Shown piece by piece: positions 1,356 through 36,719 of a stretch of DNA of 64,000 nucleotides. The stretch is from Clostridia bacterium (lineage in GTDB: Bacteria; Bacillota; Clostridia; Christensenellales; CAG-138): NCBI GenBank assembly GCA_017514685.1, contig JAFWJN010000004.1, positions 46,356 through 110,355 on the forward strand. Reading direction: 5' to 3'. The position numbers and the translations under genes were made by a program. Under the pieces are notes generated by a model. That model searched no databases. It saw only the letters and a program-made list of their open reading frames with translations, and was not told the origin of the DNA. The number at the start of each line of letters is the position of its first letter. The stretch's first letter is position 1.

Positions 1356-1423
1356 AAGATTACGCTGTATAAGAGCAAGGTTACGTGGTACTTATTGAAT
1401 GAAAGAAACTGTTAGGGTATAAA
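1356..1423 (+). promoter_or_regulatory. Putative LytTR operator and promoter of the first GH3 operon
   Basis: Two direct repeats, AAGATTACG (1356-1364) and AAGGTTACG (1377-1385), are separated by 12 bp, giving the 21-bp periodicity known for LytTR binding sites. Nine bp further on is a -35-like TTGAAT (1395-1400), then 17 bp, then TATAAA (1418-1423). The same layout recurs upstream of 7052, 10234 and 17104. That these are LytTR sites is inferred from spacing and from the neighbouring regulators. Confidence 0.65.
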
Positions 1424-1472
1424 GAAAATGCTAAAGGGAAAAATCCCGAAAAAAGCACAGGAGGGTAAGAAA

Positions 1473-2114
1473 ATGAAAAAGAAGTTTATGCTGGTATTGG
1501 CGGCTGTCATGGTTGCAATCATGATCTTAGCATGTGCAGGCGCAGGAAACGCATCGAAGGGTGAATCCAAGATCAAGGGCGTTTACCTTTCCCCTGCAAA
1601 AGCGGACTACAACAATATGCGTCCGACCTACAATTTCTATCTTTACAACTTCGCACAGAGCGAAGTTACTCTGTATGAGAACGGCACTTACATGGTTATC
1701 GTAACCGATTCCACGTTCTCTGCTGTTGAACTGGCTGAAAGCACCAACGATCATACTGAGAACGAGCGTACCAACCAGATCACGAAGTTCTTCGGCACCT
1801 ATACCGCTGTTGCGAACGAGTTGGACGATGATCTGACCGATGTTACCTTCGCAAAGCCGACCCGCATTGTCAAGAGCTTCGACCAGAGCTACTGGCTTGA
1901 TACCGACAACTGGACCGAGAAGATGGGCAAAGCGACCGCAGAGAAAGAGTATGACGGAACCACCGGCGAAGTCATCGGCGAAGGCACTCCCAAGACTGCT
2001 GCAGACTATCTGGCTGCAAACGCGTTTGACGAAGTTACTCTCTCCGTCAATGAGAAAACAGCATCCCTTGATTTCTACACCTTTGGTGTGAAGACCGGTT
2101 TCTCCCAGAACTAA
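1473..2114 (+). CDS. Extracellular lipoprotein of unknown function
   Basis: The protein has 213 residues with a lipoprotein signal peptide: MKKK, a hydrophobic stretch, then a lipobox ending MILAC with the lipidated Cys at 21. The start at 1473 was preferred over an ATG 45 bp upstream because AGGAGG lies about 8 bp before it and the signal peptide begins there. The mature part is polar and predicted beta-rich (YNFYLYNFAQSEVTLYENG), with no enzymatic motif that I recognise. It is the first gene of an operon with a membrane-anchored GH3, a four-helix protein and a second lipoprotein. A lipoprotein also precedes the GH3 at 32976-35990, so it may be a surface partner of the glycosidase. Confidence 0.8.
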   Translation: MKKKFMLVLAAVMVAIMILACAGAGNASKGESKIKGVYLSPAKADYNNMRPTYNFYLYNFAQSEVTLYENGTYMVIVTDSTFSAVELAESTNDHTENERTNQITKFFGTYTAVANELDDDLTDVTFAKPTRIVKSFDQSYWLDTDNWTEKMGKATAEKEYDGTTGEVIGEGTPKTAADYLAANAFDEVTLSVNEKTASLDFYTFGVKTGFSQN

Positions 2115-2130
2115 TTGGTAGGGTGGAATT

Positions 2131-5007
2131 ATGATGAAACAGTCCAATCTTTGGCGGGGACTGTGCTGCTTCTTTGCACTGCTTCTCTGCCTTACAAGCT
2201 TCGGGGCGGGGTTGGCGTTCCATCGTGAGGGCGACGTCAACCTGTACCTCGGCACATTGCCGCCGGTTCAGGCAGCAACCGAGGATACGACTTATTTCGG
2301 TTCCGCGTACGCCTCCAAGGACGAAATGCGTGCTGCTCTGAAGGATTATCTGATCCGGGACCAGATCGAAGGCAGCGTGCTGCTCCGCAATGAAAACAGC
2401 GCTTTGCCGATCGATCCGGCAGCTTCTGTTACACTGTTCGGCTTTGCCGCAGCGAATCCCGTCTATCACGGCGGTTCCGGCGGTCCTTCCAATACGGGCA
2501 TCAACCTGTATGACGCTCTGAAGGAAGAAGGCATCAAGGTCAACGAGACCGTTTACAACGCGATCACCGCCGCCGGCGGAAACCGGACCAAAACCGGTCT
2601 GATCGGCGAGATCTCAGCATCCGCATATGCGGGCACTGAGAGCAGCTTCGCGCAGTACAAGGATGCGGCGATCTATGTCATGTCCCGTTACGGCGGAGAA
2701 GAGGGCGACCTCAACCACGGTCTGCAGGGCGAATGGCAGGAAGGTCCCGCAGGGGTTCCCGAGCTGGCGCTTCACCAGGAAGAGATCGACACTCTGAACC
2801 TGATCAAGAATGCGGGATTCGGAAAGATCATCGTCGTGCTGAACTCCGGCTACGCGATGGAACTTGATGCACTGAAAGACTACGGCGTGGACGCGATCCT
2901 CTGGGTCGGCTATACCGGAAACTACGGCTTCACGGCAGTGGCAAAGATGATCAAAGGCGAAGCGGATCCTTCCGGACGCAACGTCATCACCTATGCAGCA
3001 AATTCCCTTTCTTCTGCGGCGATGCAGAATGCCGGTGACTTCACGTTCACGAATCTGACCGGTCTCTACAAGAACAAGTACCTGGTGTATGCCGAAGGCA
3101 TCTATCAGGGCTATAAGTACTATGAGACCCGTTACCAGGACCAGGTTCTCGGCGTCAACAACGCGAATTCTTCGAAGGGTGTTTACGCTTCCAAGGACGG
3201 CGCGTGGAACTATGCTGATGAAATGGTCTATACGTTCGGCGCAGGAAAGAGCTACGCTTCCTTCAAGCAGGAACTGGTCTCCGTGAACTGGGACAAGACG
3301 GCGCATCAGGTAACGGCAGAAGTCAAGGTCACCAACGAAGGCGGCTTTGACGGAAAGAGCAAGGATGTCGTACAGCTGTATGTTCAGCTTCCGTGGGAAG
3401 CGGGCCAGGCGGAAAAGAGCGCGATCCAGCTCGTCGACTTTGAGAAGACGAAAGACCTGGCAAAAGGCGAGAGCGATACCGTTACGCTGAACTTCTCCGA
3501 TTACATGTTTGCTACTTACGACAGCAATGCCGATAACGGTGCGGATCCGGGCAAGAAAGGCAGCTATGTCTTTGACGCAGGCGATTATTACTTCGCGATC
3601 GGCAATGACGCGCATGACGCATTGAACAATGTGCTGGCAGCAAGAGGCGTGACCGGCATGTTCGATGCGGAAGGCAATGAAGTTGCGGGCGATGCAGGCA
3701 AAGTCTATAAAGACACGCTTGCGGAACTTGACAACAAGACCTGGGCGGTTTCCCCGTACACGGGCGAAGTGGTCTATAACCACTTTGAAGACCGCGACCT
3801 GAACTACTTCATCCCGGGAACTGTCACGTACATGACCCGCGGTGACTGGAATACGTTCCCCGAACCGGTCCTGAACATCGAAGCGACCGCTGAGATCAAG
3901 GATCTGATGGAGAACTTCCAGTATAAGAAACCTGCTGACGCGCCGGATATCTCGGTTTACAAGTTCAAGCAGGATAACGGCATCTCGTTCATCGAGATGA
4001 AGGACGTCGAATTCGACGACCCGCAGTGGGAGACCTTTATCGACCAGCTGACCGTCGGCGAGCTTTCTCAGATCGTCGGCGACAAGATGGCGCTTGACGC
4101 GATCGAATCGATCGACTTCCCGGCTTACGCGGGCGGTGACGGTCCTGACGGCTATCAGGCAGGCGGCGTTCTGTTTGATGCGGAGATGGTCTGCGCATCC
4201 ACTTTCAATAAAGAACAGATTGAAAAGCGTGGAACCTTCTTCGGTGAGGAGAGCTTCTGGCTCGGCTTCCGCCACACTTATGCACCGGGCGGAAACCTCC
4301 ACCGCACACCGTATTCCGGACGTAGCTTCGAATATTATTCGGAAGATCCGGTCATGTCTTATATCTGCGGTGAACTGCAGAATACGGCAATGGCAAAGAT
4401 GGGTCTCGCGGGCATGTTCAAGCACTTCTGCGGTAACGATCAGGAAACGAACCGTCACGGCGTTGCGACATTCATGACGGAACAGACCTATCGTGAAGGC
4501 CCGCTGAAAGGTTTCGAAGGCGGCTTGTCTAAAGGTCATTCCCTCGGTACAATGACGGCATACAACCGTATCGGCTGCATCCCGACTGCGTCCGACTATG
4601 AGACGATGACAACGGTACTACGTGGTGAATGGGGATTCACGGGCATCAACATGACCGACAGCTCCAAGGACTCCGCTTCCTACATGGGAACCGCAGATGC
4701 GCTTCGTGCAGGAACGAACCAGTTCAACAATGACCCGGGTCGTGTGCCGGAAGCGAATGCGCTCCTCGTCAAGGAAAAAGACGGATTCATCTGGGGTAAG
4801 CTCCGTGAAGTCGCACATTATTATCTCTATTCCATGAGCCGTTCGAACCTCATCAACGGTCTTGCCAAGGAGGTTCCGATCACGAACTACACACCATGGT
4901 GGCAGCCTGCGCTGATTGCACTGAACATCGGGGTTGGCGTTCTGACACTCGGATGTCTGGCGATGTTCCTGTTCACACTGCTCAAAGGCAAGAAGGAGGG
5001 CAAGTAA
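2131..5007 (+). CDS. Membrane-anchored GH3 glycosidase with permuted domains (copy 1)
   Basis: The protein has 958 residues. An N-terminal signal anchor (about 7-30, starting LWRGL) precedes the GH3 C-terminal-type sandwich (EGSVLLRN from residue 80, EGIYQGYKYYETRY near 325) and an Fn3-like domain (about 395-480). Only then comes the TIM-barrel domain (about 630-910) with DGPDGY, HRTPYSG, KHFCGNDQE and nucleophile D843 in INMTDSS. Ordinary GH3 enzymes have the barrel first; this permuted order is known from Ruminococcus albus beta-glucosidase. A C-terminal membrane segment (about 928-951) follows TPWWQ and ends KGKKEGK, suggesting an Nin-Cin enzyme with an extracellular catalytic part. The substrate cannot be read; a beta-glucosidase or related exo-glycosidase is likely. 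Confidence 0.93.
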   Translation: MMKQSNLWRGLCCFFALLLCLTSFGAGLAFHREGDVNLYLGTLPPVQAATEDTTYFGSAYASKDEMRAALKDYLIRDQIEGSVLLRNENSALPIDPAASVTLFGFAAANPVYHGGSGGPSNTGINLYDALKEEGIKVNETVYNAITAAGGNRTKTGLIGEISASAYAGTESSFAQYKDAAIYVMSRYGGEEGDLNHGLQGEWQEGPAGVPELALHQEEIDTLNLIKNAGFGKIIVVLNSGYAMELDALKDYGVDAILWVGYTGNYGFTAVAKMIKGEADPSGRNVITYAANSLSSAAMQNAGDFTFTNLTGLYKNKYLVYAEGIYQGYKYYETRYQDQVLGVNNANSSKGVYASKDGAWNYADEMVYTFGAGKSYASFKQELVSVNWDKTAHQVTAEVKVTNEGGFDGKSKDVVQLYVQLPWEAGQAEKSAIQLVDFEKTKDLAKGESDTVTLNFSDYMFATYDSNADNGADPGKKGSYVFDAGDYYFAIGNDAHDALNNVLAARGVTGMFDAEGNEVAGDAGKVYKDTLAELDNKTWAVSPYTGEVVYNHFEDRDLNYFIPGTVTYMTRGDWNTFPEPVLNIEATAEIKDLMENFQYKKPADAPDISVYKFKQDNGISFIEMKDVEFDDPQWETFIDQLTVGELSQIVGDKMALDAIESIDFPAYAGGDGPDGYQAGGVLFDAEMVCASTFNKEQIEKRGTFFGEESFWLGFRHTYAPGGNLHRTPYSGRSFEYYSEDPVMSYICGELQNTAMAKMGLAGMFKHFCGNDQETNRHGVATFMTEQTYREGPLKGFEGGLSKGHSLGTMTAYNRIGCIPTASDYETMTTVLRGEWGFTGINMTDSSKDSASYMGTADALRAGTNQFNNDPGRVPEANALLVKEKDGFIWGKLREVAHYYLYSMSRSNLINGLAKEVPITNYTPWWQPALIALNIGVGVLTLGCLAMFLFTLLKGKKEGK

Positions 5008-6950: not shown

Positions 6951-7018
6951 AAGGTTATGCTGTCATGAAAAAAGGTTACGTGGTATCTGTTGGAAAACAT
7001 GCGAAAAGCAAGTAAAGT
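6951..7018 (+). promoter_or_regulatory. Putative LytTR operator and promoter of the second GH3
   Basis: Direct repeats AAGGTTATG (6951-6959) and AAGGTTACG (6972-6980) have a 12-bp spacer. After 9 bp comes TTGGAA (6990-6995), and after another 17 bp TAAAGT (7013-7018). The layout is identical to that at 1356-1423. Confidence 0.65.
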
Positions 7019-7051: not shown

Positions 7052-9994
7052 ATGAAGAAAAAGAAAGGTACTATCTGGGTTGTCCTGACTGCGGTCATGG
7101 GCATTTTTCTTGCAATCTGTATTGCGGCGATCCCGATTACGCAGGGATTTTCAACCGTTATCAACGCTGCTCTGAAAGCGCAGACACAGAAAATCGTCGC
7201 CGATGAGGGCGCCGAGATCTACTATTGGACGGACTATGAAGATCAGCAGGAACTGGTGGATTATGAGGCAGAGCTTTGCCGCCAGATCGAAGGTGAAGGC
7301 GCAGCGCTGCTCGTCAACCGGGACAATGCGCTCCCACTTGCCAAGGACAGCAAGTTTACTCCGTTCTCACAGTCAAGCTACAACCTTCTGTATGGCGGAA
7401 CTGGTTCAGGATCCATGAATGCGGATGATGCGGTTTCTCTTCGCGGTGCTTTAATCCAAGTATTCGGCGAGGATTGCATCAATATGGATCAGTGGAAATT
7501 CTATGCAAGCGCAGGCTATAAGCGTGTCAATGCGGATACCACCGGCGGCAATCAGGGACAGTACCGCATCAACGAGGTTCCGTGGGAGAAGTATTCCGAT
7601 GCATTGAAGAAGACCTGGGCGAACTATGGTGACGTTGCGCTTGTCGTGCTGGCAAGGTCCGGCGGCGAGGGCGCTGATGTTCCGAGCGGTCTCGAATCGC
7701 TGAAGGAATACATGACCGAAGGCGATTATCTGCGCCTTTGCAAGGAAGAAGTCGAGATGTTCGAAAATCTTGAACAGCTCAAAAAAGACGGCGTGTTCAA
7801 AAAGATTGTTGTACTGCTGAACAGCTCGAACGCACTGCAGCTGGACTTTGTTGACAAGTACGGCATTGACGCCGTCCTGTGGATCGGTGATGTCGGCATG
7901 ACCGGATCCCTTGGTGTTGCGGATATCCTCGCAGGCAACGTCAACCCGTCCGGACGCATCGTCGATACATTCTTAAAGGACAATCATTCCACTCCAGCGA
8001 TGGAGAACTTCGGAGCGTATGTCTGGGCAAACGGCGCTGACTATCAGGTAGAAGGCGCCCAGAGCAATGTCGATGCGGGCGTAGCGAAAGCAAACCGTGA
8101 TTATGTTGTCTATCAGGAAGGCATCTATGTCGGGTATCGTTATTTTGAAACTCGATATGAGGATTCCGTCCTCGGTCAGGGCAATTCCGGTGATTGGAAC
8201 TATGACGACTGTGTTGCATTCCCGTTCGGCTATGGCCTGTCCTACACGGACTTTGAGTATTCCAACTTCGCGATTGCTGATGAGGGTGAAACCATTAAGG
8301 TAGACGTTGATGTCAAGAATGTCGGTTCGGTCGATGGCAAGCACACTGTTCAGATTTACTTCCAGAGTCCGTATACTGAGTATGACAAAGCAAATCTTGT
8401 TGAAAAAGCAGCTGTCGAAATCTGCGGCTTTGACAAGAAGATGATTGCTGCAGGCGCTACTGAGCATTTCGAGATTTCGATTGAGAAAGAAGATCTGACA
8501 TCCTATGATGCGAATAACGCCAAGACTTATATTCTCGAAGATGGCGATTATTACTTCACAGTTGGCAAGAATGCACATGATGCAGTCAACAACATCCTTG
8601 CCGCCAAGGGCGCTGCCGTAGATGGCAAAGCGGACCTTGCAAAGGTTTGGACAAACAGCACGTTCGATAAGACCACTTATGCGGTATCTTCCAAGACCGG
8701 CAAACCGATCACCAATCTGTTTGACGATGCCGATCTGAACAAGTATGCCGGCAACGGAGGCCAGACGGTGACTTATCTGTCCCGTCAGGACTGGATCGGA
8801 ACCTATCCGACCACACAGACCCTGTCCATCACTCCTGAGATGTGGGCAGATGGACTGATCGATACCGAAGAAGGTCATAAGGCTATCGTTGAAAAACTGA
8901 AGGCAGCTTACTATGCAGGAGCAACGATGCCGGCCGTCGGTGTTTCAGGCAATCTGAAGGCAAACGATCTGTTCACTATTGCGTACGACGATGCTCAGTG
9001 GGATCAGCTGATTTCCCAGATGCCGTACGATGAGATGACAAACCTTATCTATAACGGCTTCCATATCACGCAGGCTGCTCCGTCAATCGGTCTGCCCGGC
9101 ACCCTGGATGAGAACGGTCCGCAGGGCTTCACAGCTTCCCTGATGGGTGGTGCGAGCGCAATGGCATATACTTCTGAAGACGTTATGGCGGCTACTTATA
9201 ACCGTGAGCTGATTCATGAGATGGGTTCCTGCATCGGCGAGGACTTCCTCCATGCAACCGAACCGGGTGCGGCAACCGTTTACGCGGGACTGTACGGACC
9301 AGGCGCCAACATCCACCGCACGCCTTATTCCGGCCGTAACTTCGAGTACTATTCCGAAGACGGCTGGGTGGCCGGTGAGGTCGCCGCAATCGAGGTTGCC
9401 GCGATCAAAGCAAAGGGCGTTGTAGTATACTGCAAGCACTTCGCTCTGAACGATCAGGAAGAAGGCCGTTACGGTATTGCGACATGGTCCAACGAACAGG
9501 CGATCCGCGAGCTGTACCTGGAAGGCTTTGAAGGCGCGGTCAAGGATGGCGGCGGCAGCGTTATGAGCTCCTTCAACCGTCTCGGCGTTACCTGGAGCGG
9601 CGCAAACCACGGTCTCATGACCGGTATCCTCCGTGATGAGTGGGGCCTTGAAGGCGGCGCGATCACCGACTGCTCCGTGTATGCAAAATATATGGATTAC
9701 CGGTATGGCGTATTGTCCGGTCAGGATCTGTGGGATGGTTACGGCATGGGCATGGCCTCTCTGGACGGTCTGGACAATGATCCGGCAATCGTAACAGCGG
9801 TACAGAAAGCGGCAAAGAATATTGCCTATAACTATACGCATTCTCACGCGATGAACGTCGGAAACGCGGAGATCATTCCGATCACTCCGTGGTGGCAGCT
9901 GGCAATTTACGGCGCAACCGCATTCTTCGGTGTTCTCACCGTACTGTTCCTGGTCCTTGCAATCGTTGCAAAGAAAAAGGCAAAACAGAACTGA
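7052..9994 (+). CDS. Membrane-anchored GH3 glycosidase with permuted domains (copy 2)
   Basis: The protein has 980 residues. A lysine-rich start (MKKKKGT) and signal anchor (about 8-32) precede the sandwich domain (EGEGAALLVNRDNALPL), the EGIYVGYRYFETRY motif, an Fn3-like region (KNVGSVDGKHTVQIYFQ) and, last, the catalytic barrel. The barrel carries ENGPQGF, HRTPYSGRNFEYYSED, KHFALNDQEE and nucleophile D873 in GAITDCS. The C-terminus has TPWWQ, a membrane helix and KKKAKQN, as in copy 1. It is transcribed alone, from an operator-type promoter to a strong terminator, with AGGAGG 10 bp before the ATG. It clearly differs from copy 1 in sequence, so it is an old paralogue rather than a recent duplicate. 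Confidence 0.93.
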   Translation: MKKKKGTIWVVLTAVMGIFLAICIAAIPITQGFSTVINAALKAQTQKIVADEGAEIYYWTDYEDQQELVDYEAELCRQIEGEGAALLVNRDNALPLAKDSKFTPFSQSSYNLLYGGTGSGSMNADDAVSLRGALIQVFGEDCINMDQWKFYASAGYKRVNADTTGGNQGQYRINEVPWEKYSDALKKTWANYGDVALVVLARSGGEGADVPSGLESLKEYMTEGDYLRLCKEEVEMFENLEQLKKDGVFKKIVVLLNSSNALQLDFVDKYGIDAVLWIGDVGMTGSLGVADILAGNVNPSGRIVDTFLKDNHSTPAMENFGAYVWANGADYQVEGAQSNVDAGVAKANRDYVVYQEGIYVGYRYFETRYEDSVLGQGNSGDWNYDDCVAFPFGYGLSYTDFEYSNFAIADEGETIKVDVDVKNVGSVDGKHTVQIYFQSPYTEYDKANLVEKAAVEICGFDKKMIAAGATEHFEISIEKEDLTSYDANNAKTYILEDGDYYFTVGKNAHDAVNNILAAKGAAVDGKADLAKVWTNSTFDKTTYAVSSKTGKPITNLFDDADLNKYAGNGGQTVTYLSRQDWIGTYPTTQTLSITPEMWADGLIDTEEGHKAIVEKLKAAYYAGATMPAVGVSGNLKANDLFTIAYDDAQWDQLISQMPYDEMTNLIYNGFHITQAAPSIGLPGTLDENGPQGFTASLMGGASAMAYTSEDVMAATYNRELIHEMGSCIGEDFLHATEPGAATVYAGLYGPGANIHRTPYSGRNFEYYSEDGWVAGEVAAIEVAAIKAKGVVVYCKHFALNDQEEGRYGIATWSNEQAIRELYLEGFEGAVKDGGGSVMSSFNRLGVTWSGANHGLMTGILRDEWGLEGGAITDCSVYAKYMDYRYGVLSGQDLWDGYGMGMASLDGLDNDPAIVTAVQKAAKNIAYNYTHSHAMNVGNAEIIPITPWWQLAIYGATAFFGVLTVLFLVLAIVAKKKAKQN

Positions 9995-10062: not shown

Positions 10063-10130
10063 AAGCTTGCGTCATCCAGAGGGAAGGTTGTGCGATATCT
10101 GTGGCGGAAAAGGAGACTGTATTTTACTAT
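10063..10130 (+). promoter_or_regulatory. Putative LytTR operator and promoter of the isomerase-like gene
   Basis: AAGCTTGCG (10063-10071) and AAGGTTGTG (10084-10092) are direct repeats with a 12-bp spacer. TACTAT (10125-10130) lies 32 bp after the second repeat, as at the first two operators; an overlapping TATACT (10131-10136) is an alternative -10. No good -35 is visible, as expected for an activator-dependent promoter. It is weaker than sites 1 and 2. Confidence 0.5.
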
Positions 10131-10233: not shown

Positions 10234-11082
10234 ATGAGAAAAGCAGTTCAACAGTTGATGCTTGGAAAAGTGATCAAAAGCGAAGAGCAGACTGTGCATG
10301 TGCTGGAACAGATTGCCTTTGCGGGCTATGACGGGATCGAGCTGAACGGGTATATGATCCGGAAAACGCCTGTTTTTGTACGGCTTTTGACCGCCGCTGC
10401 CGGAATGCCGGCAGGCAGAGGCGGCACTTTCGACTGGGCGGCTCTGACACGCAGCGCCCGGCTTTCGGTCGTGGGACTTCATGAGGATCTGGACACTTTG
10501 AAACAGTCCCCGGAAGCGGTGATCCGTAAAGCAAAAGAACTTGGGACCGACCGCGTGATTCTGACAGGGATGTATCAATTCGATTATACGGATCCATCTG
10601 CTCTTGGGCTGTTTTGCGAAGAACTGAACCGCTGCGGCGGGATTCTGGCGAATGAGGGTATCTCCTTTTTGTATCACAATCATAATGTTGAACTGGTCCG
10701 CCTTAGGGATAACGGGGAACGGGCTTACTCTTTTCTCATACGGAATACCGATCCCAGGGCTCTGAATTTTGAGTTTGACAGTTACTGGTTTGCGGACGGG
10801 GGAGCGAATGTTTCCGAATGGATGGAAATGTTGGGAAGTCGTATGCGCTCCTGGCATATCAATGACCGGGGTTCCAGACTGAAAGGAAAGGCGATGACGC
10901 CGATCATCAAAGAAGATTCCATGGAACTCGGATACGGGAATCTCCCGCTTGAGAAATGGACAGAAATTGCCAAATCCAACGGAACGGATACCGTTGTTCT
11001 GGAAAGCCACCGCAATCATATCAATGGCGATCCGCTCAAAAGCATCCGCCTCTCAGCAGCGTTTATCAACCGGATGTTCTGA
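10234..11082 (+). CDS. Sugar phosphate isomerase/epimerase-like TIM-barrel protein
   Basis: The 282-residue protein belongs to the xylose-isomerase-like TIM-barrel superfamily (AP_endonuc_2 fold). Visible family features are YDGIELNGY near the start, FLYHNHNVEL, FEFDSYW, a metal-site HIND and VVLESH near the end; the Glu/Asp/His residues normally bind a divalent metal. Such enzymes isomerise or epimerise sugars or their oxidised derivatives in the cytoplasm. The gene stands alone between a terminator and a two-component operon and has a LytTR-type operator, so it probably processes a sugar released by the surface glycosidases. Other members cleave C-glycosides with a beta subunit, but no such subunit is next to it. 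The exact substrate is unknown. Confidence 0.82.
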   Translation: MRKAVQQLMLGKVIKSEEQTVHVLEQIAFAGYDGIELNGYMIRKTPVFVRLLTAAAGMPAGRGGTFDWAALTRSARLSVVGLHEDLDTLKQSPEAVIRKAKELGTDRVILTGMYQFDYTDPSALGLFCEELNRCGGILANEGISFLYHNHNVELVRLRDNGERAYSFLIRNTDPRALNFEFDSYWFADGGANVSEWMEMLGSRMRSWHINDRGSRLKGKAMTPIIKEDSMELGYGNLPLEKWTEIAKSNGTDTVVLESHRNHINGDPLKSIRLSAAFINRMF

Positions 11083-11160: not shown

Positions 11161-11874
11161 ATGATTCCGGTTGCAATCGTAGAAGACAGTGCAGAGGAGC
11201 GTGCGCGGATCCGCGCATGTCTTTCGTATGTGGAAAGCACAACGGATGCTGCTTTTGATGTGCATGAATTTCCAAGCGGACTGGAGTTTCTCGGAAGCAT
11301 AGACGGCCCGGTCCCGTTTGATCTTGTTTTTATGGACATCGACATGCCGGGTATGAACGGCATGGAAACCGCGCGTGCGCTCAGAACGGCAGACTCTGCG
11401 GTACTTCTGATTTTTGTTACGAATATGGCGCAATACGCGATATCGGGGTATGAAGTGGATGCCCTTGATTTCATACTGAAACCCATCAACAAGTATTCCT
11501 TTGCCATTAAAATGAAGCGCGCTCTCACGCGCATTCCCCAGAAAAACGAAGATTATTTTACAGTCCGTACCGACGGTGAGACCCGTTCCGTACGGATTTC
11601 GTCGATTCGCTGGATCGATGTTTCAGGACATTATGTGGTGTATCATACAACAGACGGTGACATCACCGAATATACAACTCTGAAAGAAGCGTTCACGCGG
11701 ATCAACCGCAGTTCCTTTACGTTTATCAACCGGAGCTGCCTTGTAAACATGCGTTATGTAGATGCCGTTTCCAAGGAGACAGTGACCATGGGCAATACAA
11801 AACTGGACATTTCCCGCCCGCAGAAGAAAGCTTTCCTGACCGCAATGTCCGATTATCTGGGAGGCAAGGTATGA
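11161..11874 (+). CDS. LytTR-family response regulator (second pair)
   Basis: The 237-residue protein has a receiver domain with the acidic pair E8/D9, phosphoacceptor D59 in FMDIDMP, a Thr in FVTNM and the conserved Lys in FILKPI. The LytTR DNA-binding domain (about 135-235) begins WIDVSGHYVVYHT and ends with SRPQKK. It overlaps the kinase gene by 4 bp (ATGA). It is closely similar in layout to the regulators at 583 and 38190. The promoter is consensus-like and has no direct-repeat element, so its own expression is probably not strongly activator-dependent. Likely targets are the operator-bearing promoters on either side. Confidence 0.95.
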   Translation: MIPVAIVEDSAEERARIRACLSYVESTTDAAFDVHEFPSGLEFLGSIDGPVPFDLVFMDIDMPGMNGMETARALRTADSAVLLIFVTNMAQYAISGYEVDALDFILKPINKYSFAIKMKRALTRIPQKNEDYFTVRTDGETRSVRISSIRWIDVSGHYVVYHTTDGDITEYTTLKEAFTRINRSSFTFINRSCLVNMRYVDAVSKETVTMGNTKLDISRPQKKAFLTAMSDYLGGKV

Positions 11875-13135
11875 CTTTCAATTTCGCAAAAGCAGCTTTC
11901 ATGATCGAGATTCTTGTTGCGGAGCTGATTTTTCTGTTTCCGGCGGAAAAAAGGCCTTTGTTTCCGTTGCGCTATGCCGGCCTGTTTTTACTGTGTATTG
12001 TGATCGGAGGTTTTTTCCCGATCGAGTATACCGACGGCCTGCTTGCCCAGTTTCTGATGTTCTTTCTGATGTTTCTCATCACAGTCGGCGCAATGGCGCT
12101 GTGCTTTTCGGTTTCCTTTTCCGTTCTGATCTCCTGCTGCGTTGCGGGGTATGCGGTGGAGCATATCGCATTTCATATTGTTAAAATCGCGCAGCATTAC
12201 GGCTTCTTGCAGAATGCATCAGCAGGATCGATTCAAGCGAGAACACTTGCCGAGTTTGCCCTGTTCCCGTTGATCTATCTTCTGTTCTTTCTGACGATCG
12301 GTCTGTACACCTGGAAAAATCAAAGCATTAAAAAAACCGACCGAAGATTTCATTATCTGTCTTTTGCCATTGTCTTTATCTGCATCGGGCTGACCAGAAT
12401 CGCAACCTATTTCGGGGACGACGGGTCTGTCACGGTTTCTCTGTACGCGATCACAGCCTGCCTGATGGCGCTGGTTGTTCAACTGGTATTGTCCAAAGCG
12501 GTTTCTTTGAAGAAAGAGAATGATACGATCCGTCTTCTGTGGCAGGAGGACCGCAGACAGTTTGCGCTCAGCAAGGCAACGATCGACACGATCAACATCA
12601 AGTATCATGACTTGAAGCACAAACTGAGCAATATGAACCTGCCCAAGGAGGAGGTCGATTCGATCAAGGATGCGGTACGTGTTTACGGAAGCCGGATCCG
12701 GACCGGAAACGAAGCGCTTGATGTTCTGCTGACAGAGAACAGTCTCCGGTGTGGGGAACAGGGAATTACTCTTACTTATACAGGCAACGGCGCTGATTTT
12801 TCTTTCATGAATGTCATGGATGTTTATTCCCTGTTCGGAAATGCGGTGTCCAATGCCGTTGAAGCGGTGCAGAAGCTGTCCGATCCCGAAAAGAAGGTGA
12901 TCGATATCCTGTCGGAGCGCCGCGGGGAGATGATCAACGTGACCGTGACCAATTTTTTTCAGGCACGCTGCAGATCGAGGACGGCGTTCCCGTCACGTCC
13001 AAAGCAGAGGAGCAGGGATTCCATGGCTTCGGCGTGCGGTCCATGCAGCTCATCGCGGAAAAGTACGGTGGACATTTACAGGTGAAGACCGACGGAGACC
13101 TGTTCATCTTAAGCGTTTATCTGATGCAGGCATAA
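11871..13135 (+). CDS. GHKL sensor histidine kinase with a -1 frameshift at a T7 tract
   Basis: The N-terminal half is membrane-embedded (about six helices to residue 210), followed by a coiled linker, the phosphoacceptor box YHDLKHKL (H246) and the N-box FGNAVSNAVEAV. At VTNFF the frame runs into seven T's (12953-12959). The original frame then gives unrelated residues and stops at 13085. The -1 frame continues with SGTLQIEDG, HGFGVRSMQLIAEKYGGHL and LFILSVYLMQA to a stop at 13135, which aligns without a gap to the end of the kinase at 36835-38193. The glycine-rich ATP lid is therefore only made after a -1 shift. The cause could be a homopolymer read error (T8 expected), a real mutation, slipped-strand switching or programmed frameshifting. 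Confidence 0.85.
12953..12959 (+). other. T7 tract, in-phase slippery heptamer at the kinase frameshift
   Basis: In the upstream frame the bases read AAT TTT TTT CAG, so T TTT TTT fits the X XXY YYZ pattern of -1 slippery sites. A shift here joins the two halves of the kinase exactly. I did not find an obvious strong stem or pseudoknot immediately downstream. Confidence 0.6.
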
Positions 13136-13289: not shown

Positions 13290-16200
13290 GTGAAAAGAAC
13301 CGGTCTTTGGCGAGGATTAACAAGCTTAATGTGCTTCCTCCTCGCACTCTCGATGATCGCGGGACAGGCGCTGGAAGCAAACGCCCAGACGATCGACACG
13401 TATATGGGAACCCAGTCGGAAAGAACCGTTTCCGATGGAGCGCTCTATGACAAGTTCAAGCCTTCCGATGAAGTACTGAATGCAGATGGAACAGGCAATT
13501 CGCATGCTCTGATCCAGAAAGCAATCGATCTGAACCGTGAGCAGGCATACGAAGGCTCGGTGCTGCTGAAGAATGAAAACAACGTTCTTCCTCTGGCATC
13601 CGGCGCAAACGTAACTCTGCTCGGCATCCGCTCTCATAAGCCTGTTCTCGGAAGCGCATTCGGCGTGAAAGTATGGGGCCCTGTCATCAACCTCGAACAG
13701 GCACTGCGTGACAGCAAGACCAATTTTGCCAACACGATCGCGGACTCGGCTTCCACAAACTGGCAGACAGGCGAAGTCACCATCGGTCTGACGATGAATG
13801 CCTGGACAGGCGACGAATTCGATTTTGACGGCGCAGGATACAACCTGAACCAGACAATGATCGACATTTACGAAAAGCTCCTCGAAACCTATCATCATGA
13901 GTACAATGAAGGCGCTGAGGAAAGATTTGATCCGCGTGAGCCCAGCGTTGCGGACATCGCGGCAGTCAACGCCAACTACAAAGACAGCTTCAAGCAGTAC
14001 GGCGACGCGGCGATCGTTGTGATCTCCCGTGCATCCGGTGAATCCCATGACTATCTGCCCGGCGGCGTTGTCGAAGGACTCGGCATGGATGAACCTCTGG
14101 CACTGTCTCAGAACGAGCGTGACGCAATCGCGCTTGCGAAGGAAGCATCCGATAAGGTCATCGTTCTGGTTAACAGCTCCGCTTCTGTTGAAATCGCGGA
14201 ACTGAAGAACGATCCCGAGATCGACGCGATCCTGTGGATCGGCGCACCCGGTGCCTACGGCATGCTGGGCGTAGCGGATATCCTCTGCGGCAAAGTCAGC
14301 CCGAGCGGCGGTCTCTTCGACATTTTTGCGGCGAAGAACATGAGCGCACCCGCAATGCAGAACATGGGCAACTTCGGTTATACCAATGCTGCGGAACTCA
14401 TTACTCGTGGCGGCGGCACATTCGGCGGAAACACCGGCCGCTATATCATGGAAGCAGAAGGCATCTATGTCGGATATCGCTACTATGAGACCCGTTACTA
14501 CGATACAGTCGTAGGACAGGGCAACGCCAAGAGCAAGACCGGTGCCTATGCATCGACCGGTGACTGGAACTACGACGAGGAAGTTGCCTACGGTTTCGGC
14601 TACGGCCTTTCCTACACGACCTTTGATTTCGCATTTGACGGAGATCCGGTTTTCGACGTACAGAAGAACAAGAACGGTTCCGTCAATGCTTACGCAACCT
14701 TTAATGTAAAGGTTACCAATACCGGCAGCGTGGCTGGCAAGACTCCGGTCCAGATCTACGGACAGGCTCCTTATACGCTCGGCGGGATTGAGAAGAGCGC
14801 GATCCAGCTTCTGAACTATGAAAAGACGAAGCTGCTGCAGCCCGGTGAATCCGAGACCGTTGCGGTCAAGGTTGACCTCGAATACATCGCTTCCTACGAC
14901 AGCTCTCTGAACAACGGCGAGGGCGGTTACATCCTGGATCCCGGCGCATATTACTTTGCTGTCGGCAATGGCGCTCATGACGCGCTGAACAATGTAATGG
15001 TCAAGCAGGGACTGAACGTTGCGGGAAATGCAGATCTCGCCTATCAGAAAGATATCGACGAGAGCTTCCTCTCCAGAACAGCGTTCTCCGTGTCCAAGAC
15101 CGGTGAAAAGATCACGAACCAGCTGCCGTATTCCGACTGGAACTATTATCAGCCCGGCGAAGTCACCTACCTCTCCCGTGCGGACTGGGCAGGCACCTGG
15201 CCGAAGACCTATGATCAGATGACCCTGACCAATCAGGAATTCATCGATCTTCTGAACGGCAAATACTACACCATCGCTAAGAACGACGATACTTCCTCCG
15301 TCATTTGGGAAGAAGGAAACGGCACGAAGTTCTATGAGATGTGGGGCGAAGACTACAACAGCGAGAAGTGGGAAGAGCTCATCAACAACATGACGCTGGA
15401 AGAAGCCATGTATCTGGCTACCTACGGCGGTCCGTCGATCCCCGGCGCATCGACGATCGGTACCGTTGAAACCTATATGACCGAGAACGCAGGCAACGGC
15501 GTTGCCGTTTCCCTGAACGCGTCCAAGGATACTTCCGCTCCGTGGGCGATCCCCGTGGAAGATCCGAACGGCACGTGGCATCCCGAAGTGTTCGGAAACA
15601 GCCCGCTGACTGCTTCGACCTTCAATCCGGATCTGTGCTACAGACTCGGCGCATTCGTCGGTGAAGAGTCTCTGTTCGCAGGAATTCCGATCCTCTGGGG
15701 CCCCGGTCTCAACACGCACCGTCATGCTTATAACGGCCGTAACGGCGAATACTATTCCGAGGATCCGATCCTCTCCGGTGTCACCGCTATGGAATTCGCG
15801 ATCGGCGCTCTGAAGTACGGTCTGATCGCAGCTCCGAAGCACTATGCGTTCAATGACCAGGAAACCAACCGTTCCGGCGTTGCTCCTTACATGACAGAGC
15901 AGCGTGCCCGTGAAGTTGAGCTCCGTGCTTATCAGTATGCTTTTGAAGCGACCAAGTACGATACCGATTCGTTTGATCAGGGTATGCGCGGTCTGATGGT
16001 CTCCTTCTCGAAGATCGGTCCCATCGAATGCACCGCATCCGTCGGTCTGATGACCAACATTCTTGCGAAGGAATGGGGCTTCCGCGGTTACGCGGTCACC
16101 GATATCTACGATGACTTCGATATCTACGGTGCTGTTATCACTTCCGGTACGACCTGCTACGATACACGCGGCATGTCCGGCTTCTACACCAACACGACAC

Positions 16201-17074: not shown

Positions 17075-17103
17075 AAAATCAGAATAAAAGGATGGAGACA
17101 GTT

Positions 17104-22985: not shown

Positions 22986-23021
22986 AGAGTTAACCTCCTT
23001 TGAAAAACAGTTTCTGATAGT

Positions 23022-23050: not shown

Positions 23051-23090
23051 GAATTGTCAAAACAGTGTAAAATAATTTGGGCTTAAACGC

Positions 23091-32975: not shown

Positions 32976-35900
32976 TTATACGGCTGTCTGGAGCGCGAAT
33001 GCCAATGCCGGACCCCATTCGGTGATCAGCATGAAAATCAGGTATCCGAGAAGCGCAGCTGCGATTGCCCATACGACGATACGGATGATCCATACAGTAC
33101 GTTTGGACAGTTTCTTTTGTTCGGGATAACATCCGAGCAGGACTTCCATCGTTCCATATGCGACGAAGATCAGTTCCATCAGATAGAGTGCACCGAGCAG
33201 CAGTTTCCAGACCGGGAATCCTGCACTGCCACCCATGCCGACGGCGATGCTGTTCGCGGCGAGGTACAGCTGATTCTTCGCAGCGGCTCGGAGACCGGCC
33301 TGTCCGCCTTTGGAAGAAAGCGTTTCCGCATTGTAAGATGTCTGAGCCATGGAGCAGACCATATCGCATCCCGCGGCGATTGCCTGTTCCGCTTCCTTTT
33401 CATTCAGGGACTGCGCGTCGGTGATAATGCCGCCTGTGAAGCCCCATTCATTACGCAGCACGCCTGTATTGAGAGACCAGTCACCCGGGCAGATACGGTA
33501 GCCTGTACGGCCCATGGAGCTCATGATGCTTGATGCTTTTCCGTTTACGACCGGAAGTTCAAATGCCTTGAGGTAGATCTCGCGCAGGCACTGTTCTGTC
33601 GCGTACGTGCCGAGACGGCCATTCGCGCCGCGGTTGGTATCCTGATCGTTGAACGCGAAGTGCTTCAGGGTAGGCTGTACGCCGTTGGTTTTTGCTGCCT
33701 TAACGGTTTCTGTTGCCATGAGGCCGCTCATCACACCGTCTTCGGAATAGTATTCAAAGTTGCGGGCAGAATAAGCCGTGCGGTGAATGTTGACGGCAGG
33801 CGCCCACCAGTGCACCGCGCCTTTCATCGCGAACTCGGTCGAGACAAGGCGTCCGAATTCATATGCCAGTTCTTTGTTCCAGGTTGCGCCAAGCAGGTTT
33901 TCGTCGGTAAACTGGTATCCTTCACCGCCGGAAACGTAGTCGATCATGCCCTGCGGGCCGTCCAGGAAGTGCGTTTCGGGTTTGCCGACAGAATCAACCG
34001 CTCCGCTGCCCCAGCCGGCCTGACCGGCAAGAGCTGCTGTTTCATTCTGGGGAAGCTGGTCCAGAAGCTTATCCCACTGTTCATCGTTGTAGTCAAGTCC
34101 CGCGACATCTGCAAGCGTCAGTCCGTTCTTGGCGCCGTAAGTGACCGCGCTCCAGGAAGCGTCATCCCGTCCGATTGGCGCACCTGCGGCATCCCAGCCT
34201 TCGGAAAGCAGTCCCTGATAGACATTCTCAGGAATCTCATGCGTGTAAACCGTTCCGTTTGCGTCAGTCGTTTCACTCTTGCCCGACATGGTATCGGCCG
34301 CATACCGCAGTCCGTCGTTTTCCATAACGCTCCAGTCGGAACGGGAGAGATAGACCGCATCGGAAAGATAAGCATGATCGAATAGGTTCTCAATCTTTTC
34401 ACCGGTCACAGCAGTATCTAAAAGTCTGGTTTCCTTTTCGGTATGGGTGGCGACAAGAGCAGCATCTCCGTCAACCGCAGCGCCCTTTGCGGCAAGGATA
34501 TTGTTGACTGCGCTGTGCGCATCCTTGGCCAGCGTCAGATAATAATCACCGGCTTCGAGAATATAGGTTCCGTTGCCGAACGAATCGTAGCTCTTCATGT
34601 CGCTGACGTTCAGAGTCAGGGTCAGGGCTTCGCTTTCACCCGGGGCAAGCAGCTTCGTCTTTGCAAAATCCGCGAGGTTTACGCTTGACTTTTCCACGCG
34701 GTTATCGATATCGTACCGGGTATACGGTGCCTGGTAGTACAGCTCGACAACATCTTTGCCGGCGATCAATCCGCTGTTGGTTACCTTGACGGAAACAGAG
34801 ATATTGCCGTTTTCATCCGGGTCGGAGGCGGTAAAGTCACTCCAGTCAAAGGCAGTGTAGGAAAGCCCAAAGCCGAACGGCGCGAACACAGTGCTATCAT
34901 AGTTATAATCACCCGCGTTGCCCTGTCCGAGAACAGCGTCCTCGTAGCGTGTTTCATAATACTTGTAGCCGACATAAATTCCTTCGGCATAGTTCATATA
35001 ACTGTAGGTTCCGCCGACGCCGCTTGTGGTGCTGTCAATCAGTTCACCGTTTTTCGTGAAGCGGAAATCGGAGAAGTTCTGCATCGCCGGAGCGGAGAAA
35101 TTGTCGTATACATAGGTATCGACATTTCTGCCGGAAGGATTGATTTCACCGGTCAGCAGTTTACCGAGCACCTGTACGCCGTCTTTGCCGGTACCGGATA
35201 CCCACAGGACCGCATCAATGTCGTAATCGTTCATGAAATCCATCTGCATCGCGTTGGTTGTATGCAGAACAACAATGACTTTACTGAAGTTGGCGGTTAC
35301 TTCTGTCAGAAGATCGCGCTCTTCCGCCGTCAGTTCCAGATAGCCTTTGGCATCATCGCCGCCGAAACGGCCCATGTGACGGGGAAGATCTCCGCCTTCG
35401 CTGCCACCGCGGGACAGGACGACAATCGCCGCGTCGCTATAATCTTTGTAACTTGCCTTGACGGTATCCGTGTATTCACTGATCGGAACTTCATCGATAG
35501 CCCAGGTGCCGGCGATTCCGCCGTTGCCGAGGTTCGCGCCGATGCCCCACGCGGTGTGCTTCGACTGCTTATAGAACTTCCGAAGCTCAGTGTTGATCTC
35601 AAGTCCTGCGTCCTGCAGGCTCTCGAGAAACACGGTATCTTTCGTTCCGGTGATCTTTTCCTTGGTCATCCAGATCTGCGCGGTCTGGCCGAAAACGGAA
35701 ACTTTATTACCCTTTTGAAGCGGCAGCACGTTTTCATCGTTTTTCAGAAGAACGGTTCCTTCGGAAACGATTTCGAGCTCCAGTGCTTTCTGCGCTTCCA
35801 GCAGCTCTTCTTCGGTCATCGTAATTTCAACGCCGGAGCCTTTCTTGCCGCCGATCGTGCCGAAGTAACTTGTCAAAGCGCGTTCCCATGTAAAGGCGTA

Positions 35901-35990
35901 ACTCGTCGCAAAGACATTCGCCAGCACGAGCAATACGACAACGATGCACCAGATGGAAAGCCGAAGTTTTCTGTTCGGAGTTTTTTTCAT
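32976..35990 (-). CDS. Membrane-anchored GH3 glycosidase with permuted domains (copy 4)
   Basis: The protein has 1004 residues. A signal anchor (about 9-32) and TSYFGT motif precede the sandwich domain (SEGTVLLKNDENVLPL; EGIYVGYKYYETRY), an Fn3-like region (TNSGLIAGKDVVELYYQ) and the barrel with LDGPQGM, HRTAYSARNFEYYSED, KHFAFNDQDTNR and nucleophile D858 in GIITDAQS. Unlike the other copies it has two C-terminal membrane helices (about 910-940 and 960-990) with a basic loop KKLSKRT between them, so the tail may end outside. The ribosome site is GAGG 9 bp before the ATG. The operon is lipoprotein, hairpin, GH3, with a GHKL-LytTR pair divergent from it. Confidence 0.93.
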   Translation of the reverse strand: MKKTPNRKLRLSIWCIVVVLLVLANVFATSYAFTWERALTSYFGTIGGKKGSGVEITMTEEELLEAQKALELEIVSEGTVLLKNDENVLPLQKGNKVSVFGQTAQIWMTKEKITGTKDTVFLESLQDAGLEINTELRKFYKQSKHTAWGIGANLGNGGIAGTWAIDEVPISEYTDTVKASYKDYSDAAIVVLSRGGSEGGDLPRHMGRFGGDDAKGYLELTAEERDLLTEVTANFSKVIVVLHTTNAMQMDFMNDYDIDAVLWVSGTGKDGVQVLGKLLTGEINPSGRNVDTYVYDNFSAPAMQNFSDFRFTKNGELIDSTTSGVGGTYSYMNYAEGIYVGYKYYETRYEDAVLGQGNAGDYNYDSTVFAPFGFGLSYTAFDWSDFTASDPDENGNISVSVKVTNSGLIAGKDVVELYYQAPYTRYDIDNRVEKSSVNLADFAKTKLLAPGESEALTLTLNVSDMKSYDSFGNGTYILEAGDYYLTLAKDAHSAVNNILAAKGAAVDGDAALVATHTEKETRLLDTAVTGEKIENLFDHAYLSDAVYLSRSDWSVMENDGLRYAADTMSGKSETTDANGTVYTHEIPENVYQGLLSEGWDAAGAPIGRDDASWSAVTYGAKNGLTLADVAGLDYNDEQWDKLLDQLPQNETAALAGQAGWGSGAVDSVGKPETHFLDGPQGMIDYVSGGEGYQFTDENLLGATWNKELAYEFGRLVSTEFAMKGAVHWWAPAVNIHRTAYSARNFEYYSEDGVMSGLMATETVKAAKTNGVQPTLKHFAFNDQDTNRGANGRLGTYATEQCLREIYLKAFELPVVNGKASSIMSSMGRTGYRICPGDWSLNTGVLRNEWGFTGGIITDAQSLNEKEAEQAIAAGCDMVCSMAQTSYNAETLSSKGGQAGLRAAAKNQLYLAANSIAVGMGGSAGFPVWKLLLGALYLMELIFVAYGTMEVLLGCYPEQKKLSKRTVWIIRIVVWAIAAALLGYLIFMLITEWGPALAFALQTAV

Positions 35991-36014
35991 TTTCGATTAC
36001 CTCACACTCTTTTG

Positions 36015-36040: not shown

Positions 36041-36056
36041 ATTACTGTTCGTTTGC

Positions 36057-36641
36057 TTATTCTTTCGGAAGGGATGCGATGAATGCATCCAGTGTATCGA
36101 ACTGTACGGAAGCGCTTCCGGCCATGTCAACAGTGCGCATATACTCTCCGGGGATAATGCCGAAGTCGAACGCAAAGCTGAAACCGCCGTCGCTTTCCTC
36201 ATACAGCGTGTAGGTGTACTTATGATCCAGCAGATCGTCATATGTGCTGGCACCCTCAAGCGGCGTTTCCTTACGCATGGTCAGCGTGATTTCCTTACCG
36301 TCCTCGGTATCTTCAGCTGTCCAGAAGCCGTAGAATGTGAATGCGCGTCCGCCGTAACCTGCCTGTTTGCCGCAGACGGAGCCGTCTTCGTACAGATTGA
36401 TCAGAAAATCATAAACGATATTATACTGCGGATCGCCCATATCCCAGTGACCTGTAAACTGATAAGCAATGGCTTTATTCCAGTCGGTCGCGGTCCACTC
36501 TTTGTAGTGTGCCCAGTCGATTGCAGCGGGTTCCGCCACGGCCTCGGTCTTGGCTTCGGTCCCTGCAGAACTGCCGCAGCCGGTCAGGATAAACAGCAGA
36601 CAAAGCATCATGGAAATGATGGATAAAACACGTGATTTCAT
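36057..36641 (-). CDS. Surface lipoprotein paired with GH3 copy 4
   Basis: The 194-residue protein has a lipoprotein signal peptide (FILTGC lipobox, Cys 22) and a short Ala/Glu/Thr linker. The mature part is aromatic and beta-rich (FTGHWDMGDPQYNIVYDFLINLYEDG). Its end (SFAFDFGIIPGEYMRTV and DAFIASL) resembles a segment of the lipoprotein at 5452-6837. It has no catalytic motif that I know. It is the first gene of the GH3 copy 4 operon, behind an operator-like promoter. A substrate-binding or enzyme-partner role is inferred from the recurring lipoprotein-GH3 pairing. Confidence 0.8.
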   Translation of the reverse strand: MKSRVLSIISMMLCLLFILTGCGSSAGTEAKTEAVAEPAAIDWAHYKEWTATDWNKAIAYQFTGHWDMGDPQYNIVYDFLINLYEDGSVCGKQAGYGGRAFTFYGFWTAEDTEDGKEITLTMRKETPLEGASTYDDLLDHKYTYTLYEESDGGFSFAFDFGIIPGEYMRTVDMAGSASVQFDTLDAFIASLPKE

Positions 36642-36673
36642 TGATTTCTTCCTCCCAATTTTTTCTTGCTTTC

Positions 36674-36719
36674 AGTATATTTAAAATGAAGATAAAAAGG
36701 TTGAAAACTGCATAATCTC
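36674..36719 (-). promoter_or_regulatory. Putative LytTR half-operator and promoter of the minus-strand lipoprotein-GH3 operon
   Basis: On the minus strand GAGATTATG (36719-36711) matches the proximal repeat of the other operators and is followed after 31 bp by TATACT (36679-36674). The expected distal repeat 21 bp upstream is degenerate (TTAATTTGT). An inverted repeat GTTGAAAA / TTTTCAAC (36700-36707 and 36724-36731) flanks the half-site. This is the weakest of the five sites. Confidence 0.45.

What the first reader, a model, noticed from the sequence alone, without database searches (positions are those of the whole stretch)
1356..36719. A shared direct-repeat operator at five glycosidase promoters
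Upstream of 1473, 7052, 10234, 17104 and (minus strand) 36641 I find copies of A/C/G-AG-N-TTAYG-like 9-mers. Four are pairs with exactly 12 bp between them (21-bp period): AAGATTACG/AAGGTTACG, AAGGTTATG/AAGGTTACG, AAGCTTGCG/AAGGTTGTG and CAGATTACG/GAGTTTATG. The fifth has one good half (GAGATTATG). The -10 box lies 31-33 bp after the proximal repeat at all five; at three of them a TTGnnn -35 lies 9 bp after it. The 21-bp spacing is that of LytTR sites, and three LytTR regulators lie among these genes, but the 9-mer differs from the common ACNGTTNAT-like site. It defines a coherent regulon of surface glycosidases, lipoproteins, a GH2-symporter pair and an isomerase.
Basis: partly seen in the sequence, partly recalled or inferred. 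Interest (0 to 1): 0.85.

Follow-up and report, generated by a model that had tools for sequence, protein, structure and literature searches.

The report
LytTR operator controlling a glycosidase regulon
A Clostridia-type bacterium carries the same paired DNA switch in front of about nine groups of genes, mostly for surface enzymes that cut sugars and esters, and comparison with relatives points to one neighbouring two-component regulator as the protein that throws it.

Summary
The fifth (36719) has one good half; its other half is doubtful. The conserved half is longer than described, about 13 bp (nARnTTRYGCkGT), with a 21-bp period, TTG 9 bp after it and a -10 at 31-33 bp.

A model of six sites, searched in 23 congeneric genomes, gave 14 further hits at E<=0.01, all in the four genomes that hold one response regulator, RR A (window 583-1296), or its ortholog, and none in the other 19. 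Most precede orthologous genes. One such genome, G020, shows no ortholog of the window's other two LytTR regulators. Homologs of two target genes in genomes without RR A lack the site. So the regulon is best assigned to RR A, without binding data.

It also covers a GH78, esterases, an ABC exporter and a candidate ~85-nt sRNA with an anti-Shine-Dalgarno stretch. All nine LytTR regulators of this genome neighbour a long GH3. Architecture: canonical LytTR; content: unusual.

The parts
1356..1385 (+). Operator s1: direct repeat AAGATTACG-12-AAGGTTACG
   Evidence: training site of R1; sites before the orthologous lipoprotein in G020 and G002
1418..1423 (+). -10 TATAAA of s1 (TTGAAT 9 bp after the proximal repeat)
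   Evidence: counted
1473..2114 (+). Lipoprotein gene, no Pfam family; first gene of the s1 unit
2131..5007 (+). GH3a, permuted order (GH3_C, Fn3-like, GH3_N), hydrophobic segments at both ends seen by eye
583..1296 (-). RR A: receiver + LytTR domain; proposed regulator; divergent from s1
   Evidence: orthologs 81/81/61% in G020, G005, G002
1..565 (-). Approximate 5' part of HK A (GHKL-like kinase); its start was not determined; the rest lies upstream of the window at L039:19232-19999
   Evidence: frame runs off L039 into the window; extent inferred
6951..6980 (+). Operator s2: AAGGTTATG-12-AAGGTTACG
   Evidence: site before the GH3b ortholog in G020
7013..7018 (+). -10 TAAAGT of s2
   Evidence: counted
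7052..9994 (+). GH3b, permuted GH3
10063..10092 (+). Operator s3: AAGCTTGCG-12-AAGGTTGTG
   Evidence: sites before the isomerase in G002, G005, G020
10234..11082 (+). Xylose-isomerase-like TIM barrel protein (AP_endonuc_2)
11161..11874 (+). RR B: receiver + LytTR, downstream of the s3 isomerase
   Evidence: best match among the compared RRs of G002, G005, G020 is 42% and not reciprocal
11871..13085 (+). HK B: GHKL-type kinase; reading frame changes inside the ATPase domain in this assembly
13290..16493 (+). GH3c, permuted GH3; no R1 or R2 hit directly upstream
17006..17035 (+). Operator s4: CAGATTACG-12-GAGTTTATG
   Evidence: sites before GH2 in G005, G020; none before the 78% identical GH2 of G009
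17092..19035 (+). GH2 (nearest NCBIfam model beta-glucuronidase LacZ4, below its cut-off); likely start 17104
19054..20853 (+). GPH/MFS-type sugar symporter
36711..36719 (-). s5: single good half GAGATTATG; doubtful distal half TAATTTGTG at 36739-36731 (11-bp spacer)
   Evidence: not hit by R1 or R2
36057..36641 (-). Lipoprotein gene upstream of GH3d, no Pfam family
32976..35990 (-). GH3d, permuted GH3
36748..38193 (+). HK C, GHKL kinase
38190..38921 (+). RR C: receiver + LytTR
49793..49822 (+). Further operator AAGGCTGTG-12-AAGATTGTG, not in the R1 training set
   Evidence: R1 E=2.9e-4
49915..53282 (+). HlyD-type fusion protein, ABC ATPase and MacB/FtsX-type permease behind the 49793 site

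Best explanation
The repeats are the operator of one LytTR two-component system, HK A/RR A. Phosphorylated RR A would bind the two 13-bp half-sites on one face of the helix and help RNA polymerase at the promoter just downstream, switching on a dispersed regulon of surface enzymes (permuted GH3s, GH78, GH2 with a sugar symporter, esterases), an isomerase, an ABC exporter and probably a small RNA. In this strain the s3 unit also carries a second LytTR system (RR B/HK B), so TCS A may sit above it. Shown here: the sites, their geometry, their place before orthologous genes in relatives, and their co-occurrence with RR A. Inferred: binding by RR A, activation rather than repression, the inducing signal, the operon extents and the sRNA transcript.
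For: Four perfect pattern matches in the genome, all upstream of genes. Model R1 (6 sites of this genome): 14 non-training hits at E<=0.01, all in the 4 genomes with RR A or its ortholog, 0 in the other 19 of 23. Of the 14, 12 lie just upstream of a same-strand gene and 2 before sRNA-like units. Sites stand before orthologs of the s1 lipoprotein, GH3b, isomerase, GH2, GH78 and an esterase-like lipoprotein. G020 (90% complete) has two RRs in this search, the RR A ortholog and a C51-type one, and keeps the sites. Three isomerase and three GH2 homologs in genomes without RR A have no site: best 20-site score -9.3 to 0.0, against 32.3-37.5 for the seven such genes in genomes with RR A; with a six-site matrix from this genome alone, the five of these seven that lie in other genomes score 23.4-31.8 and the four no-RR-A genes rescored 0.5-4.6. 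Above a score of 27 only 12-bp spacing occurs in held DNA. HK B is frame-shifted. Geometry matches LytTR promoters in print (PMC6193735, passages).
Against: No binding, expression or transcript-start data. The four genomes share target genes and may be one clade, so co-occurrence is not independent evidence. In most genomes only 150 first-look candidates were scored, so absence is not exhaustive. With the later model R2, five genomes without RR A give one hit each at E 0.004-0.006 (G007, G008, G019, G021, G004), three of them covering only the proximal half and promoter and G007's having a 13-bp spacer. An 11-bp-spaced place in coding sequence (L041:3879) scores 26.0, as high as the weaker accepted sites. 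RR C is the closest paralog here (46%), so cross-binding is possible; G005 has three other LytTR-type hits. G020 is a draft. Several homologs without the site follow closely on another gene, where no site is expected. The sRNA is seen in 2 of 4 genomes and the two RNAs share only a CU-rich stretch and a terminator. 20 of the 24 R2 hits at E<=1e-3 are its own training sites.
Confidence: 0.8

Rival explanations
1. Each of the three window regulators reads its own neighbouring subset: RR A s1 and s2, RR B s3 and s4, RR C s5, with similar sites because the regulators are paralogs.
For: Each regulator lies near a site. A paralogous module (C51 type) has its own operator, ACGGTTCATGC repeated at 21 bp before its GH3, in G000, G020, G019 and less exactly G002, so paralogs can own distinct sites. 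s5 is weak against the common model.
Against: s3 and s4 type sites are kept in G005 and G020, where no RR B ortholog was found; RR B's kinase is frame-shifted here. Only s5 fits this rival better.
Confidence: 0.12
2. A LytTR operator read mainly by another regulator, or by several paralogs at once (cross-talk within the LytTR set).
For: Nine LytTR regulators in the genome; a GGTT core in both the A-type and the C51-type sites; a G007 hit with R2 at E=0.004 without RR A.
Against: G009 and G019 have other LytTR-type regulators but no RR A ortholog and no R1 hit at E<=0.01, and the GH2 of G009 lacks the site.
Confidence: 0.06
3. Chance or recent duplication of promoter DNA rather than a functional operator.
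For: At loose stringency the pattern is rarer than its control.
Against: Sites lie on four contigs of this genome (C10, C20, C45, C52) before different genes, keep the repeats while the bases between -35 and -10 vary (column counts), and R1 hits at E<=0.01 fall only in genomes with RR A.
Confidence: 0.02

Closest known systems
VirR/VirS regulon of Clostridium perfringens (VirR boxes)
   Same: Two imperfect direct repeats just upstream of the -35, same face of the helix, several targets, and a regulatory RNA (VR-RNA) in the regulon (PMC2838878, passages). The VirR box core GTTnTnC (recalled) fits GTTATGC here.
   Different: Targets there are toxin genes and others; here surface glycosidases, esterases and a symporter. 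Orthology of RR A to VirR was not tested.
AgrA of Staphylococcus aureus with RNAIII
   Same: LytTR regulator binding direct repeats upstream of promoters with suboptimal spacers (PMC4227749, passages); drives an RNA (recalled).
   Different: Quorum-peptide system; peptide genes beside TCS A were not searched for. The -35/-10 spacer at s1 and s2 is 17 bp (counted).
LytTR regulatory systems HdrRM/BrsRM of Streptococcus mutans
   Same: 9-bp repeats, mostly 12 bp apart (minority 11 or 13), 4-11 bp upstream of the -35, sequences diverging from the LytTR consensus (PMC6193735, passages).
   Different: Those are regulator plus membrane-inhibitor pairs; here receiver-LytTR proteins with GHKL kinases.
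Gram-positive PUL Ros-7 of Roseburia intestinalis with a LytTR response regulator
   Same: A LytTR response regulator and a histidine kinase listed with a glycosidase locus (PMC5320581, passages).
   Different: GH25, GH43 and GH51, one locus, no operator described in the passages seen; here permuted GH3s and a dispersed regulon with a defined site.

Membership tests
LytTR direct-repeat operator | Two direct repeats of about 9 bp, 12 bp apart (minority 11 or 13) | tested here: met
   Four window pairs and all 20 aligned sites of A3, which were chosen for it; s5 not met at 12 bp
LytTR direct-repeat operator | Repeats lie 4-11 bp upstream of the -35 | tested here: met
   TTG begins 9 bp after the proximal 9-mer: T 18/20, T 16/20, G 17/20 at columns 42-44 of A3
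LytTR direct-repeat operator | Repeat fits the broad LytTR consensus [TA][AC][CA]GTTN[AG][TG] (recalled) | tested here: inconclusive
   Mean 5.85 of 9 (distal) and 6.45 of 9 (proximal) over 20 sites; position 8 departs in all (Y for R)
LytTR direct-repeat operator | A LytTR regulator co-occurs with the site | tested here: met
   R1 hits at E<=0.01 in 4 of 4 genomes with RR A or ortholog, 0 of 19 without; R2 gives five weak exceptions at E 0.004-0.006
LytTR direct-repeat operator | The regulator binds the repeats in vitro | not testable with these tools
   none
Receiver-LytTR response regulator (AgrA/VirR/ComE kind) | Receiver domain plus C-terminal LytTR domain over curated cut-offs | tested here: met
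   RR A, B, C: PF00072 and PF04397
VirR regulon | Orthology of the regulator to VirR | not tested
   VirR was not fetched or compared
Anti-Shine-Dalgarno sRNA | Free-standing promoter and terminator with an unpaired CCUCC stretch | tested here: met
   L041:8320-8425 and L079:673-805; fold z -7.52 and -6.11 (the L079 stretch also includes a further hairpin), CU-rich part unpaired in the predicted fold; sequence only, no transcript shown
Anti-Shine-Dalgarno sRNA | Known Rfam family | tested here: not met
   No Rfam match over gathering score at either place

The most novel reading that the evidence does not exclude
In these Clostridia, LytTR two-component systems and long, domain-permuted GH3 enzymes form a paralogous family of matched modules, each with its own direct-repeat operator, working as a Gram-positive counterpart of sensor-enzyme polysaccharide loci; one of them (TCS A) has become a hub that also drives a small RNA with an anti-Shine-Dalgarno stretch and a second such module (TCS B).
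Probability: 0.35. Interest if true: 0.7.

Novelty: new variant of a known kind. Interest (0 to 1): 0.5.

Why it matters
LytTR regulators are best known from quorum sensing, competence, bacteriocins and toxins. A LytTR operator running a dispersed set of surface glycosidases, in a genome where nine LytTR systems each sit beside a long GH3, would give such Clostridia a sensor class for glycan or glycoside use that can be tested directly, and the site model predicts regulon members from sequence.

Tried and rejected
Loose pattern search (up to 2 mismatches) gave fewer real than control hits and was dropped as evidence. Of its eleven 1-mismatch hits four were kept (C20:43032, C20:96149, C45:131209, C10:72259), being intergenic with a -10 at the right distance; the other seven (C9, C15, C42, C45:29896, C49, C52:66601, C60) lie in or across open frames.

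DNA similarity search with the G000 sRNA found no homolog in G002, G005 or G020, only short matches at E 0.15 or worse. A duplex scan of its CU-rich part against 340 ORF starts in held DNA gave generic Shine-Dalgarno pairing, regulon genes ranking from 8 to 228; no target is claimed. First in-frame starts were used and the s1 gene was not among the starts matched, so the ranks are rough.

The distal half of s5 was tested at 11, 12 and 13 bp and is not claimed. An antisense ORF at L042:10339-13626 was sent to Pfam by mistake and matched nothing; the GH3 is on the other strand. In one search the G015 isomerase row was read at the wrong place; redid it (257 bp held upstream, best score -5.0). Operators of the C61, C5, C52 and C2 modules were looked for by eye without a clear result. 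A comparison of the regulators with solved structures was not used further.

Full report
Observation. All five places were read and scanned. Four are pairs with exactly 12 bp between the 9-mers; the fifth is a single half. In the draft genome (2,373,337 bases, 61 contigs, 82.6% complete) the pattern AGNTTRYG-N13-AGNTTRYG has four perfect matches, exactly the four in the window. With two mismatches it is rarer than the reversed control (96+76 against 127+83), so only tight matches count. In 218,046 held bases, period 21 has 4 exact pairs and all other periods from 8 to 129 together have 2.

Better motif and more members. Aligning 20 sites from three genomes gives a half of about 13 bp, nARnTTRYGCkGT. 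Further sites in this genome: before a GH78 lipoprotein (L039:16676, C20) and an esterase-like secreted protein (L040:9209, C45), both used to train R1; before a HlyD/ABC/MacB-type operon (window 49793, R1 E=2.9e-4, not trained on); and before an esterase-phosphatase-BD-FAE lipoprotein cluster (C52:25132, R2 E=1.6e-4, not trained on, though its G002 counterpart was). A tyrosine-phosphatase-like lipoprotein (L039:15306) is weaker: R1 does not find it at E<=1, but R2, trained with it, hits upstream of its counterpart in G002 (C284, E=0.006). A C61 lipoprotein (R2 E=0.06) and s5 are doubtful. One unit is an sRNA candidate. In held DNA the two-part score at 12-bp spacing has 11 places of 21 or more (nine of them training sites) and then drops to 10.7; at 11 bp one place reaches 26.0, in coding sequence, and s5 follows at 17.4; at 13 bp the best is 17.0.

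Cross-species test. R1 was built from six sites of this genome only. In the 23 genomes of the genus it gives 20 hits at E<=0.01: 6 training sites and 14 others, in G000 (2), G002 (5), G005 (2) and G020 (5). The other 19 genomes have none; at E<=0.05 one partial hit appears in G019 (positions 32-74) and one more in G020. In most genomes only 150 first-look candidates were scored. RR A orthologs (61-81%) occur in G002, G005 and G020. The out-of-sample sites stand before the orthologs of the s1 lipoprotein (G020, G002), GH3b (G020), isomerase (G002, G005, G020), GH2 (G005, G020), GH78 (G020, G002) and an esterase-like lipoprotein (G002). R2 (20 sites) gives 24 hits at E<=1e-3, only in those four genomes; 20 are training sites, two are the near-identical G005 copies and two are new (G000:C52:25132, G002:C184:9687). 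Against it, at E 0.004-0.006 R2 also hits G007, G008, G019, G021 and G004 once each; G008, G019 and G004 match only from position 27 or later, and the G007 place has a 13-bp spacer. These look like background but were not studied further.

Which regulator. G020 (90% complete) has two RR hits at E<=1e-20 in a search with RR A that recovers all nine LytTR regulators of G000: the RR A ortholog and one 70% identical to the C51 regulator; neither is an ortholog of RR B or RR C. It still has s1, s2, s3, s4 and GH78 type sites. Homologs of two targets in genomes without RR A were then examined: isomerases of G018, G015 and G001 (52-56%) and GH2s of G009 (78%), G001 (52%) and G018 (54%, partial). Their best 20-site scores upstream (up to 350 bp; 257 bp for G015) run from -9.3 to 0.0, against 32.3-37.5 for the seven isomerase and GH2 genes in genomes with RR A; five of those seven are training sites of that matrix and the two of G005 are near-identical to G020's. 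A matrix from six sites of this genome gives 23.4-31.8 for the five such genes of G002, G005 and G020, and 0.5-4.6 for the four no-RR-A genes rescored. Several of these no-site genes follow closely on another gene, so a site just upstream was not expected there. A second GH2 in this genome (C50, 50%) also has no site. RR B's kinase changes frame inside its ATPase domain here. RR A is the best candidate; RR C may read s5.

Small RNA candidate. At C10:72258 the site and a -10 (L041:8320, TAAGAT) are followed by no gene of 80 or more residues on that strand but, within about 50 nt containing CCUUCCUCCUUUUU, by a hairpin and T-run pointing the same way. R1, not trained on it, gives E=0.005. In G002 a site beside TCS A (C269:617, R1 E=3.6e-4) is followed in the same way by CUCCUCCUUUUUU and a terminator, between the end of the upstream frame (573) and the HK A stop (820). 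A frame of some 500 residues opens on that strand in G002, antisense to HK A; I take it as non-coding. No such unit was recognised among the G005 and G020 hits, and Rfam has no match at the two places. It is a prediction in 2 of 4 genomes.

Wider pattern. All 9 LytTR genes of this genome lie within about 4 kb of a long GH3 (frames of 955-1177 aa), and of 15 Fn3-like matches all 10 in long frames are so placed while the 5 in shorter frames (799-849 aa; domain order not tested) are not near a LytTR hit on their contigs. Nine of the 10 long ones show the order GH3_C, Fn3, GH3_N; the C51 one was identified by tblastn and the Fn3 model. Of the 80 best loci kept from other organisms (the scan had more), 12 match the RR profile's first sequence at 33% or more over at least 190 residues; 9 of these 12 (L114, L115, L117, L118, L119, L121, L122, L123, L132) have a related GH3 in the held DNA, up to about 7 kb away, and none of the other 68 does at E<=1e-8. 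L118 (a 3.5-kb contig titled Listeria valentina) and L123 (a Bifidobacterium MAG) may be misassigned. The C51-type module has its own operator, ACGGTTCATGC repeated at 21 bp, in G000, G020, G019 and less exactly G002, so modules seem to differ in site; for the C61, C5, C52 and C2 modules no operator was found.

Literature (passages only, no paper read whole). Architecture agrees with LytTR promoters (PMC6193735, PMC4227749, PMC2838878). A LytTR response regulator in a Roseburia glycosidase locus is listed in PMC5320581. Searches for LytTR with 'glycoside hydrolase family 3' (0 papers), 'anti-Shine-Dalgarno' and 'small RNA' (0), 'beta-glucosidase' (10 listed), 'glycoside hydrolase' and 'two-component' (16 listed) and PUL terms (60 papers, 12 listed) showed no description of this regulon by title and start of abstract; most subscription papers are not in that library.

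Function guess. GH3, GH78 (rhamnosidase), GH2 with a GPH symporter, a BD-FAE esterase and an isomerase suggest use of plant glycosides or decorated plant glycans; this is inference from family names. No tool named the host taxon; the best relatives fetched are mostly Clostridia.

Noticed in passing
G000 contigs C2, C5, C20, C51, C52, C61: All 9 LytTR response regulators neighbour a long GH3, and all 10 long GH3s neighbour a LytTR system; the 5 shorter GH3s do not.
   Followed up: partly
L041:8259-8425 (G000:C10) and L079:610-805 (G002:C269): Operator plus promoter before a short terminator-ended stretch with an anti-Shine-Dalgarno CU-rich part: candidate sRNA.
   Followed up: partly
L042:10326-10460 and the same region in G020, G019, G002: A different LytTR-like operator, ACGGTTCATGC at 21-bp period, before the C51-type GH3.
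   Followed up: partly
window 12900-13100: HK B changes reading frame inside its ATPase domain; a decayed gene or an assembly error.
   Followed up: partly
L080:8327-12160 (G002:C54) against window 32976-36747: GH3d is 85% conserved in G002 and its lipoprotein looks alike by eye, but the adjacent response regulator is only 45% like RR C, as if the regulator had been exchanged.
   Followed up: no
window 5009-5434, 16495-16929; L042:13589, L043:16823, L046:13671: Small membrane proteins of about 130-160 aa sit next to long GH3 genes; the two tested have no Pfam family.
   Followed up: no
L196 (G007:C93:4123-4192): R2 hit at E=0.004 with a 13-bp spacer before a gene, in a genome without RR A.
   Followed up: partly
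L039:9962-10172 and L039:8548-8640: raiA RNA and a TPP riboswitch upstream of the window.
   Followed up: no
window 20928-23060 (-): Old-yellow-enzyme-like flavin oxidoreductase beside the GH2-symporter unit; could act on released plant aglycones (speculative).
   Followed up: no
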